A stretch of DNA of 64,000 nucleotides, from positions 4,650,001 through 4,714,000 of the forward strand of contig NZ_CP113910.1 in assembly GCF_024701375.2 (NCBI RefSeq), given 5' to 3'. The stretch comes from Streptomyces sp. KMM 9044. Lineage in GTDB: Bacteria; Actinomycetota; Actinomycetes; Streptomycetales; Streptomycetaceae. Numbering within the stretch: position 1 is the stretch's first letter; each line of letters starts with the position of its first letter. The notes under the pieces are model-generated. The model saw nothing but the letters and a program-made list of their open reading frames with translations. It was not told where the DNA came from and searched no databases. The position numbers were made by a program, and so were the translations under genes. Below are positions 34,309 to 36,323 of the stretch, piece after piece.

Positions 34309-34731
34309 ATGCTGACCATCACCCAGGAGCTGTACGACCGGATCGTCGCCCACGCGCGCGAGGACCACCCCGACGAGGCGTGCGGCGTGGTGGCGGGCCC
34401 GGCGGGCTCCGGCCGCCCCGAGCGTTTCGTGCCCATGCTGAACGCGGCCCGCTCACCCACGTTCTACGAGTTCGACTCGAAGGACCTGCTCAAGCTCTAC
34501 CGCGAGATGGACGACAACGACGAGGAACCGGTGATCGTCTACCACTCGCACACCGCGACCGAGGCCCGCCCCTCCCGCACCGACATCTCCCTCGCGAGCG
34601 AGCCCGGCGCCCACTACGTCCTGGTCTCCACCGCCGACACCGACGGCCTCGGCGACTTCCAGTTCCGCTCCTTCAGGATCGTGGACGGCGAGGTCACGGA
34701 GGAGGAGGTCGAGGTCGTCGAGGCGTACTGA
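34309..34731 (+). CDS. mec: JAMM/MPN+ metalloprotease, Mec+ (CysO-processing) homologue
   Basis: A 140-residue zinc protease. The JAMM motif is complete: Glu23 (DEACGVVAG), His79 and His81 (YHSHTATEARPSRTD) and Asp92. In mycobacteria the homologue Mec+ cleaves cysteine from CysO-Cys in the thiocarboxylate pathway, and the related QbsD trims C-terminal residues from a MoaD-like carrier. Here cysO and cysM follow, so the same role is inferred. It is separately promoted and is separated from cysO by a leader peptide. Confidence 0.9.
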   Translation: MLTITQELYDRIVAHAREDHPDEACGVVAGPAGSGRPERFVPMLNAARSPTFYEFDSKDLLKLYREMDDNDEEPVIVYHSHTATEARPSRTDISLASEPGAHYVLVSTADTDGLGDFQFRSFRIVDGEVTEEEVEVVEAY

Positions 34732-34862
34732 GCCGTGCCGGACCCCCGCGCGAGCGGCGCGGACCGGGCTCCGAACAGCCTCTTCCCACATGCCGGTCGC
34801 CCGTCTTCCGGAGTGTGAGACGGCACTCGGATCCGGTCATCGGGAATCGATACGATGACCCC

Positions 34863-34958
34863 ATGGTTCTCCATGACGTGAGCGACAAGACGCCGGGCAA
34901 GCTGCTCGTGGCGCGGCTGCACGTCGACCTGTGCCGACTCGCCAGCGCCATCTGTTGA
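34863..34958 (+). CDS. cysteine-type leader peptide upstream of cysO-cysM
   Basis: A 31-residue reading frame from ATG 34863 ends with ARLHVDLCRLASAIC. This matches the short putative leader peptides found upstream of sulfur genes in streptomycetes, which end in Cys-containing VDLCRLASAIC or similar. In mycobacteria, short cysteine-rich frames upstream of sulfur genes attenuate expression in response to Cys-tRNA levels. The Cys codons (TGC, and TGT as last sense codon) sit at the end, so ribosome stalling there could affect cysO-cysM translation 120 bases downstream. The mechanism here is inferred. Confidence 0.8.
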   Translation: MVLHDVSDKTPGKLLVARLHVDLCRLASAIC

Positions 34959-35079
34959 CATCGAGCCTCCCGCCGCACGGCCCGTGAGCCCGGCGGCACC
35001 ACCGTGCACGGACACCCGTGCGCCGCCCGCGCCGCCGCGCGCCCACCGACAGACGACATCACCGAAGGAGCCCTCCGCC

Positions 35080-35367
35080 ATGGCCATCGAGGTCCGGATC
35101 CCGACCATCCTCCGCCAGTACACCGACGGTCAGAAGGCGGTGGAGGGTACCGGAAACACCCTCACCGAGCTCTTCGCCGACCTCGAGACCCGGCATGCCG
35201 GCATCCGGGCCCGCCTCGTCGACGACGCCAACGGCGACCAGCTGCGCCGCTTCGTCAACGTGTACCTCAACGACGAGGACGTCCGCTTCCTCGACGGCAT
35301 CGACACCAAGCTGACCGACGGCGACAGCATCACGATCCTGCCGGCCGTGGCCGGCGGCACGGCCTGA
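35080..35367 (+). CDS. cysO: CysO, MoaD/ThiS-family sulfur carrier
   Basis: A 95-residue ubiquitin-fold sulfur carrier that presents a C-terminal thiocarboxylate to CysM for cysteine synthesis. It reads [38 protein letters not shown] and [16 protein letters not shown]. The Gly-Gly (92-93) is followed by two extra residues, Thr-Ala, that must be removed before activation; the adjacent JAMM protease is the obvious candidate. GAAGGAG is nine bases before ATG. The stop lies five bases before cysM. Confidence 0.92.
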
Positions 35368-35372
35368 TCCGG

Positions 35373-36323
35373 ATGCGCTACGACTCGCCGCTGGCCGCGG
35401 TCGGCAACACCCCGCTGGTGCGCCTGCCGCGGCTCTCGCCGTCGGCCGACGTCCGTGTCTGGGCGAAGCTCGAGGACCGCAACCCGACCGGTTCGATCAA
35501 GGACCGTCCGGCCATGTTCATGATCGAGCAGGCGGAGAAGGACGGCCGGCTCACCCCGGGCTGCACCATCCTGGAGCCGACGTCCGGCAACACCGGCATC
35601 TCCCTGGCGATGGCCGCCAAGCTCAAGGGCTACCGCATGGTGTGCGTGATGCCCGAGAACACCTCGCAGGAGCGCCGGGACCTCCTGTCCATGTGGGGCG
35701 CGGAGATCATCTCCTCCCCGGCCGCCGGCGGCTCCAACACCGCCGTGCGGGTCGCCAAGGAGATCGGCGCCGAGCACCCGGACTGGGTGATGCTCTACCA
35801 GTACGGCAACCCGGACAACGCGGGTGCCCACTACACGACCACCGGCCCGGAGATTCTCGCCGACCTGCCCTCGATCACGCACTTCGTGGCCGGCCTCGGC
35901 ACCACCGGCACCCTCATGGGCGTCGGCCGCTACCTGCGCGAGCACAAGCCCGACGTGCGGATCGTCGCCGCCGAACCCCGCTACGACGACCTGGTCTACG
36001 GGCTGCGCAACCTCGACGAGGGCTTCGTCCCCGAGCTGTACGACGCCTCCGTCCTCACCACCCGCTTCTCCGTCGGCTCCGCCGACGCCGTCACCCGGAC
36101 CCGTGAACTCCTCCAGCGGGAAGGCATCTTCGCCGGTGTCTCCACCGGGGCCGCCCTGCACGCCGCGATCGGCGTCGCGAACAAGGCGCTCAAGGCGGGG
36201 GAGAGCGCCGACGTCGTCTTCGTCGTCGCCGACGGCGGCTGGAAGTACCTGTCGACCGGCGTCTACACCGCCGCCACGACGGAGGAAGCCATCGAAACGC
36301 TCCAGGGCCAGCTCTGGGCGTGA
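35373..36323 (+). CDS. cysM: CysO-dependent cysteine synthase
   Basis: A 316-residue PLP enzyme. Lys43 in [10 protein letters not shown] forms the Schiff base, [19 protein letters not shown] binds the substrate carboxylate, and [15 protein letters not shown] binds phosphate. In actinobacteria this subgroup uses O-phosphoserine and CysO-thiocarboxylate rather than free sulfide, a route resistant to oxidation. The five-base gap from cysO and the leader peptide upstream show one transcription unit. A strong terminator follows. Confidence 0.94.

What the first reader, a model, noticed from the sequence alone, without database searches (positions are those of the whole stretch)
34309..36323. Complete thiocarboxylate cysteine pathway with leader peptide and CysO needing C-terminal trimming
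JAMM protease, leader peptide, CysO and CysM lie in order. CysO ends GG-Thr-Ala rather than in GG, so a proteolytic step must expose the diglycine before thiocarboxylation. The adjacent JAMM protein could do both this trimming and the release of cysteine from CysO-Cys. The 31-codon leader ending in Cys makes a cysteine-sensing attenuator likely.
Basis: partly seen in the sequence, partly recalled or inferred. Interest (0 to 1): 0.7.

Follow-up and report, generated by a model that had tools for sequence, protein, structure and literature searches.

The report
Stress promoter inside cysteine leader peptide
This is the ordinary Streptomyces CysO cysteine pathway, whose tail trimming had already been proposed and backed by genetics, but its small leader peptide carries what looks like a thiol-stress promoter across its start codon and belongs to a conserved family placed before three sulfur gene sets.

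Summary
In detail: mec (JAMM), a 31-codon leader, cysO ending AVAGG-Thr-Ala, and cysM lie in order at 34309-36323. Trimming of capped CysO by the JAMM protein is not a new idea: in S. platensis ptmS1 (JAMM) clusters with a carrier capped GG-MV, and the ptmS1 mutant makes no thioacid (PMC6006322, passages). 'Complete' is too strong: the activating enzyme lies 2.25 Mb away.

Two features I found in none of the papers listed by my searches. (1) The leader start overlaps two promoter motifs: TACGAT six bases before the ATG, and the SigR consensus GGAAT-N18-GTT whose GTT is codon 2. The latter is in 109 of 110 loci (one masked), slides by one base in other genera, and survives in five loci that lost the leader module. 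(2) The leader end (R-x-x-VDL-x-R...[IL]-C) is under peptide-level selection and recurs before sulfite reductase and thiosulfate sulfurtransferase genes, with the rare UGU as last Cys codon in every copy counted. No terminator was found. Start sites, SigR dependence and the coupling to cysO are inferred.

The parts
34309..34731 (+). mec: JAMM metalloprotease (probable CysO-Cys hydrolase and trimmer of the CysO tail)
   Evidence: translation; Prok-JAB 105.1 bits; HSHTATEARPSRTD at residue 79 and E23
34842..34847 (+). GGGAAT, -35 element of a SigR-type promoter motif
   Evidence: only GGGAAT-N18-GTT in the window, chance mean 0.09; GGAAT-N18-GTT in 109 of 110 loci, the other masked
34851..34856 (+). 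TACGAT, candidate -10 of a housekeeping-type promoter, 6 nt before the leader ATG (leaderless transcript)
   Evidence: read; conservation profile (the leader finder required TANNNT, so the count is partly circular); no sigma-70 match by strict scan
34863..34958 (+). 31-codon leader peptide MVLHDVSDKTPGKLLVARLHVDLCRLASAIC
   Evidence: NF042934 cis_reg_atten 37.9 bits
34866..34868 (+). GTT: SigR -10 element and leader codon 2
   Evidence: 104 of 104 GTT; GTT shifts by 1 nt and changes the amino acids in L150, L153, L154
34878..34880 (+). GTG codon 6: candidate second leaderless start for a SigR transcript
   Evidence: GTG in 104 of 104; start site not measured, inference
34914..34955 (+). conserved peptide module R18-C31 (RLHVDLCRLASAIC), last Cys codon TGT at 34953-34955
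34959..35079 (+). C-rich, G-poor gap between leader stop and cysO; no terminator-like site
35064..35070 (+). GAAGGAG, probable cysO ribosome binding site
   Evidence: read; many relatives have ACAGGAG here
35080..35367 (+). cysO: sulfur carrier protein ending AVAGG-TA; tail codons 35359-35364
35373..36323 (+). cysM: O-phosphoserine sulfhydrylase type cysteine synthase
   Evidence: 3dwg_A and 3dki_A E 1.5e-145

Best explanation
The locus is the CysO/CysM/Mec cysteine route with two layers of control on cysO-cysM. Enzymes: CysO is made with a short disposable cap after GG; Mec removes it, an unlinked MoeZ-type E1 thiocarboxylates the GG, CysM uses the thiocarboxylate with O-phosphoserine, and Mec frees cysteine. 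Control: a promoter region between mec and cysO drives cysO-cysM. A housekeeping promoter (TACGAT) starts at the A of the leader ATG. A SigR promoter (GGGAAT-N18-GTT), whose -10 is leader codon 2, starts inside the leader under thiol stress. The ribosome reads the leader; with little Cys-tRNA it waits at the last Cys codon (UGU) with the VDL-x-R segment in the exit tunnel. The waiting ribosome keeps the C-rich gap open and lets cysO be expressed, either by preventing early (probably Rho-type) termination or by freeing the cysO start. Shown here: gene identities, conservation of the motifs, peptide-level selection, UGU invariance in the loci counted. Published elsewhere: need for the JAMM gene with capped carriers, diamide induction of cysM. 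From known biochemistry of the mycobacterial enzymes (recalled): the chemistry. Inferred: SigR use, both start sites, ribosome waiting, the coupling to cysO.
For: Enzymes. Cap: 108 of 110 loci capped, 2-24 residues, first cap residue Met in 86; S. platensis ptmS1/ptmS2 (PMC6006322 passages). SigR motif: 109 of 110 with exactly one, spacer 18; 0 of 110 at each other spacer from 10 to 30; 27 of 27 (L123-L149) and 4 of 4 (L180-L183) further same-genus loci, 0 of 14 loci of the CysO paralog (L166-L179). GTT is kept as DNA, not as valine: in L150, L153, L154 it sits in ATG CGT TCC with spacer 19, and five loci (four distinct sequences) that lost the leader module keep GGAAT...ATGGTT. cysM of S. coelicolor is hardly expressed without diamide and is induced by it with or without NdgR (PMC4340878 passages); SigH of M. 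tuberculosis directly regulates mec-cysO-cysM (PMC4803200 passages). Leader: found in 104 of 110 loci, sister leaders before sulfite reductase and rhodanese genes, syn/nonsyn odds ratio 10.9, p 6e-7 in the module against no bias in codons 3, 4, 8-11, terminal TGT in 104/104, 30/30 and 29/29 where TGT is 12 of 105 Cys codons in the window.
Against: No start site, ribosome profile or reporter data were available. None of the passages I saw names cysM or SCO2910-2912 as a SigR target; PMC4340878 cites work in which SigB raises cysM, and PMC4991794 ties its induction to HbpS-SenS-SenR. TACGAT has no good -35 box, and my leader finder required TANNNT, so its conservation is partly circular. No terminator-like site, covariation near zero, fold of the leader region weaker than its shuffles (z 0.79). 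The sulfite reductase leader of this genome has only one Cys, so counting of Cys codons cannot be the rule. Two loci (L037, L083) have bare GG. In the order draw 9 of 14 parsed loci of other genera have neither the motif nor a leader and end in bare GG. Relatives are not independent samples; the 110 loci are the nearest ones and may hold a species twice.
Confidence: 0.6

Rival explanations
1. Classical terminator attenuation: leader, antiterminator and intrinsic terminator hairpin, as in trp operons.
For: Leader ORF with Cys codons near its end; some relatives show a CCCCCGCGCGGGGG-like hairpin in the gap by eye; RNAalifold energy of the cysO set z -3.2 against column shuffles.
Against: No terminator-like site in 34700-35400; RNA folding z 0.79 for the window; covariation term -0.01 for cysO; gap length varies from 81 to 249 nt.
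Confidence: 0.1
2. Translational attenuation by hiding the cysO start: the leader end pairs with the cysO ribosome site and start, and a waiting ribosome opens it, as described for cysteine genes of M. smegmatis.
For: Leader CTGT can pair with ACAG of the ribosome site seen in many relatives; cysteine genes of M. smegmatis are cited as regulated by translation attenuation (PMC13236596 passage); 10-base complement at the rhodanese start in this genome.
Against: The window has GAAGGAG, not ACAGGAG; the rhodanese pairing shrinks to about 4-8 bases in other species; covariation near zero.
Confidence: 0.3
3. The leader is only a by-product: conserved DNA is promoter and operator, and the peptide has no role.
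For: The 5' part of the leader is conserved mainly where the promoter motifs lie; five loci lack the module.
Against: The 3' part shows strong synonymous over nonsynonymous change, recurs before two other sulfur genes with partly different codons, and has an invariant rare codon.
Confidence: 0.12
4. Thiol-stress induction of cysO-cysM runs through SigB, SenR or NdgR, and the GGAAT-N18-GTT motif is not used by SigR.
For: SigB raises cysM and the other sulfur genes (cited in PMC4340878); induction depends on HbpS-SenS-SenR (PMC4991794 passages); NdgR binds upstream of SCO2910-2912 by ChIP-seq; an NdgR-like site lies upstream in 27 of 104 loci.
Against: The motif fits the SigR consensus exactly, with one spacer, in 109 of 110 loci, and the orthologous operon is under SigH in M. 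tuberculosis. These regulators may also act together.
Confidence: 0.15
5. The CysO cap is neutral and some general peptidase removes it; Mec only frees cysteine from CysO-Cys.
For: Cap length and sequence vary widely; Mec also occurs where CysO ends in bare GG.
Against: The ptmS1 mutant loses thioacid formation that uses capped carriers in S. platensis (PMC6006322 passages); Met is the first cap residue in 86 of 110.
Confidence: 0.15

Closest known systems
PtmS1/PtmS2 (JAMM protease and GG-MV capped sulfur carrier) of Streptomyces platensis, PMC6006322 (passages)
   Same: Clustered JAMM gene and capped carrier; cap of two residues after GG; cap removal proposed as needed and supported by gene loss.
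   Different: There studied for thioplatensimycin sulfur, not for cysteine or gene control; leader and promoter not discussed in the passages seen.
Mec-CysO-CysM of Mycobacterium tuberculosis (Rv1334-Rv1336)
   Same: Same three proteins; best PDB matches of CysM are 3dwg/3dki, of CysO 4n6e_B and 3dwg_C (that 3dwg and 3dki are mycobacterial is recalled); operon directly regulated by SigH (PMC4803200 passages).
   Different: The 3dwg_C CysO ends in bare GG. In the Streptomyces loci mec and cysO are further apart (median gap 312 nt in 117 loci against 79 nt in 23 others), with the SigR motif and the leader between them.
Mycobacterial poly-Cys leaderless leaders (Ms5788A, Ms4527A; Canestrari 2020, not held, known here by citation)
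   Same: Short ORF before cysteine genes, Cys at the end, leaderless geometry; weak profile matches of 16.7 and 15.9 bits.
   Different: Two Cys codons, not a run; below the cut-off of 45 of both families; a conserved VDL-x-R segment stands before the last Cys.
NCBIfam NF042934 cis_reg_atten, putative leader peptide
   Same: 37.9 bits, cut-off 27.
   Different: A 19-position profile whose description names no mechanism; promoter overlap and the UGU rule are additions from this study.

Membership tests
NF042934 putative leader peptide | profile score above the curated cut-off | tested here: met
   37.9 bits, cut-off 27, residues 14-31
NF042934 putative leader peptide | regulates the downstream gene in cis | not testable with these tools
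   no expression data at hand
Mycobacterial Ms5788A / Ms4527A Cys-rich leaders | profile score above cut-off 45 and a run of Cys codons | tested here: not met
   16.7 and 15.9 bits; Cys only at 24 and 31
SigR promoter | GGAAT-N18-GTT | tested here: met
   34843-34868; 109 of 110 loci; consensus from a PMC2375139 passage
SigR promoter | SigR-dependent start site | not testable with these tools
   diamide induction of cysM is published (PMC4340878 passages); SigR dependence of this promoter was not seen in the passages read
CysO-type sulfur carrier (ThiS/MoaD fold) | ThiS fold and C-terminal GG | tested here: inconclusive
   PF02597 62.5 bits; GG present but followed by TA, so it must be exposed
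Mec JAMM peptidase | E and H-x-H-x7-S-x2-D metal site | tested here: met
   E23, HSHTATEARPSRTD at 79
CysM, O-phosphoserine sulfhydrylase | closest to the O-phosphoserine enzyme, with its C-terminal tail | tested here: met
   E 1.5e-145 to 3dwg/3dki (3dki named O-phosphoserine sulfhydrylase) against 2.1e-74 for 2bht, the best outside that group; tail LQGQLWA aligned to LEGQLWA
Classical terminator attenuator | intrinsic terminator between leader and gene | tested here: not met
   0 found in 34700-35400, fold z 0.79

The most novel reading that the evidence does not exclude
One leader ORF has two leaderless starts chosen by sigma factor: the housekeeping transcript begins at the ATG (codon 1), the SigR transcript begins next to the invariant GTG (codon 6). 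Thiol stress thus swaps the leader's N-terminus and 5' end while keeping the VDL-x-R-...-UGU sensor, so that cysteine need and thiol stress are read by one short ORF. The VDL leaders before cysO, sulfite reductase and rhodanese would be nascent-chain cysteine sensors rather than Cys-codon counters.
Probability: 0.3. Interest if true: 0.62.

Novelty: new variant of a known kind. Interest (0 to 1): 0.45.

Why it matters
It would link two signals, thiol stress and cysteine supply, at one short stretch in Streptomyces, the main antibiotic producers. It shows that conserved residues of a leader peptide can be promoter bases. It also gives a small, testable set (three operons, one codon, one peptide segment) for asking how actinobacteria sense cysteine without an obvious terminator.

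Tried and rejected
Pairing of the rhodanese leader end with its own gene start: a 10-base complement in this genome, but other species keep only about 4-8 bases around the self-complementary CATG, so it is not a general rule.

Consensus RNA structure from the last leader codons to the gene start: z -3.2 for cysO (95 sequences), 1.6 for rhodanese (30), -1.4 for sulfite reductase (26), covariation term -0.01, 0.22 and -0.06; duplicates, sequences longer than 230 nt (cysO) or 300 nt (others), and those without ATG at the assumed start were dropped. The cysO value comes with a few scattered pairs and no covariation, so I did not build on it, but it is a hint of structure against my reading.

A tight link between cap and adjacent mec was expected and not found: mec is missing from the fetched stretch in 24 of 137 same-genus loci (L013-L149), yet the 12 of these genomes that I searched all have it elsewhere, and 30 of 31 other genomes searched have it, with capped and with bare CysO (G134 has none).

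An NdgR-like site ([GT]T[CT]C-N7-GGAC) lies upstream in 27 of 104 loci; I see none in the window by eye. Not pursued.

Left out of counts: L152, L155, L187, L204 (not parsed); L255 (orientation or start not found, so 29 of 30 sulfite reductase loci); L098 (masked across the promoter). In one search my script missed L072, L093 and L109 and matched a wrong place for L118; their promoter stretches were read instead.

Full report
What is there. The window lies in a 7.43-Mb genome whose nearest named relatives are Streptomyces (79 of the 80 records; one is titled Kitasatospora aureofaciens). mec, leader, cysO and cysM lie in order on the + strand at 34309-36323. Mec has the JAMM metal site, CysO the ThiS fold and the end AVAGG-TA, and CysM has nearly twice the bit score to the 3dwg/3dki group (487) as to the next solved structure (254). 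The activating enzyme is elsewhere in the genome, so the pathway may be complete in the cell but not in the operon. CysO was found in 121 of 121 genomes of the genus draw, 197 of 197 of the order draw and 172 of 296 of the phylum draw, paralogs included.

The cap. Among 110 loci (the 30 best of the 121-genome search, window included, and 80 named relatives), 108 CysO proteins have residues after GG: MA 50, MV 23, MR 12, SV 4, the rest fewer, up to 24 residues; two end in bare GG (L037, L083). In other genera CysO often ends in bare GG, with mec adjacent or not; in G122 mec and cysO are 8.4 Mb apart on one contig. The trimming idea is published: in S. platensis the carrier PtmS2 is capped with MV, clusters with the JAMM gene ptmS1, and the ptmS1 mutant cannot make the thioacid, while the ptmS2 mutant can, which the authors explain by a second capped carrier (PMC6006322, passages). 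For the in vitro work the caps were removed during cloning, so direct cleavage of this cap by this enzyme is not shown in what I saw.

The promoter motif in the leader. All 109 loci that could be read (L098 is masked there) have exactly one GGAAT-N16-20-GTT in the 500 bases before cysO, always with spacer 18; no other spacer from 10 to 30 gives a match in any of the 110. This is the SigR consensus (PMC2375139 passage). Where the leader was found, GTT is codon 2 in 104 of 104, although GTT is 24 of 1203 Val codons in 30 filtered ORFs of the window. Two natural cases show DNA rather than protein conservation. In L150, L153 and L154, from other genera of the order, the spacer is 19, the leader starts ATG CGT TCC, valine is gone and GTT stays. 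In L026, L072, L093, L109 and L118 (four distinct sequences) the conserved module is lost but GGAAT...ATGGTT is kept. Of the 14 parsed loci of other genera in the order, 5 have the motif (L150, L151, L153, L154, L157) and 9 do not; of 19 parsed phylum loci among L184-L204 none has it before cysO; of 14 paralog loci none. Codons 3 and 4 vary, codon 6 is GTG in 104 of 104.

Leaderless start. TACGAT ends six bases before the ATG; in S. lividans the mean distance from -10 to start is 6.3 and 17% of transcripts are leaderless (PMC8079986 passages), so a transcript starting at the ATG is likely. My leader finder asked for TANNNT, so its presence in all leaders is partly circular, and a strict sigma-70 scan finds nothing. 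If both promoters are real they overlap and cannot be used at once.

Stress data. In S. coelicolor, cysM is hardly expressed without diamide and is induced by it with or without NdgR, which then represses it (PMC4340878 passages). The same paper cites SigB as raising cysM, and another shows that SCO2910-2912 rise under oxidative stress in a way that depends on HbpS-SenS-SenR (PMC4991794 passages). Neither these passages nor those of two SigR papers name cysM as a SigR target. I recall that the SigR regulon paper of Kim and others, 2012, may list it, but could not read it. SigH, the mycobacterial counterpart, directly regulates Rv1334-Rv1336 (PMC4803200 passages).

The leader as one of a family. 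In this genome NF042934 has three matches above its cut-off: here, before a sulfite reductase and before a thiosulfate sulfurtransferase. The same leaders were found in 30 of 30 rhodanese loci and 29 of 30 sulfite reductase loci (the 30 best of 60 and of 61 genomes with matches). By gene content these correspond to SCO4164-4165 and SCO6102-6097 of S. coelicolor (my inference), which with cysM are the three sulfur units bound by NdgR. The consensus module is R-[RL]-[HA]-V-D-L-[CG]-R-x-x-[SA]-x-[IL]-C, with a few exceptions. Distinct single-base changes are mostly synonymous: cysO 18 of 33 possible synonymous against 9 of 91 nonsynonymous, p 6e-7; rhodanese 6 of 36 against 0 of 88; sulfite reductase 8 of 32 against 6 of 93. 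Codons 3, 4 and 8-11 show no such bias (6 of 12 against 22 of 41). The last Cys codon is TGT in 104, 30 and 29 of as many, where TGT is 12 of 105 Cys codons in the window. Counting the three leaders as only three independent draws, chance would give about 0.0015.

How it may work. Peptide-level selection, and a sulfite reductase leader whose only Cys is near the end, argue for a ribosome that waits at that codon with a defined peptide in its exit tunnel, rather than for a count of Cys codons. What follows is open. There is no terminator-like site and the RNA folds no better than shuffles, though the aligned cysO set scores z -3.2 without covariation. The gap after the leader is C-rich and G-poor (C 0.474, G 0.285 over 104 loci; crude background of 13 upstream regions in the window 0.347 and 0.335), which would suit Rho. 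Rho was also proposed in 2005, as a weak prediction, for mycobacterial cysteine leaders (PMC1262725 passages). Hiding of the start cannot be excluded.

What is known. Cysteine leaders of mycobacteria are known (PMC9094748 and PMC4633059 passages; Canestrari 2020 not held). The 2005 survey names cysteine leaders in Mycobacterium, P. acnes and B. longum, and the S. lividans reannotation lists eight leader peptides, none for cysteine. Among the papers listed by my searches (8 of 9, 20 of 1,017, 6 of 6, 3 of 3, 2 of 2, 15 of 84) I saw no title, abstract start or passage that describes this leader or its promoter overlap; most of these papers I did not open, and most subscription papers are outside the library. 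NCBI's profile shows that its curators know the peptide family. I therefore call it a new variant of a known kind.

Noticed in passing
window 44076-44135 (+): Guanidine-III riboswitch (44 bits, gathering 36) at the head of an ORF listed as 44024-44497 (real start probably later) that by eye looks like a small multidrug-resistance type exporter: an ordinary guanidine exporter arrangement.
   Followed up: partly
L043, L050, L059, L070, L110 (end of cysO): Five named records carry a nearly identical 18-residue insert between the CysO diglycine and the last two residues (SAAA[KTE]PRP.GVA.GRRAG then MA or MV), while L044, a close relative of L043, lacks it. Origin unclear.
   Followed up: no
L265-L276: In 12 genomes of the genus without mec in the stretch next to cysO, mec lies 1.7 to about 19 kb away on the same contig in 11 (on the other strand in four) and on another contig in one; leader and SigR motif stay with cysO in all 12.
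   Followed up: partly
L193, L199, L201: GGAA[TC]-N18-GTT lies upstream of mec (123, 82 and 67 bases before it) in three of 23 loci outside the genus, between mec and cysO in three more (L150, L151, L195), and in neither place in 17; background 0.024 per 410 bases. The SigR-type promoter may have moved from mec to cysO.
   Followed up: partly
window 37118-37867 (+): MBL-fold protein downstream of cysM, 235.6 bits to the cyclic-nucleotide phosphodiesterase family NF041851 but below its cut-off of 400.
   Followed up: no
S. lividans, PMC8079986: The published metNIQ leader ends ...RCMCRRMCAF; it was filed as methionine-dependent but its Cys-rich end resembles these leaders.
   Followed up: no
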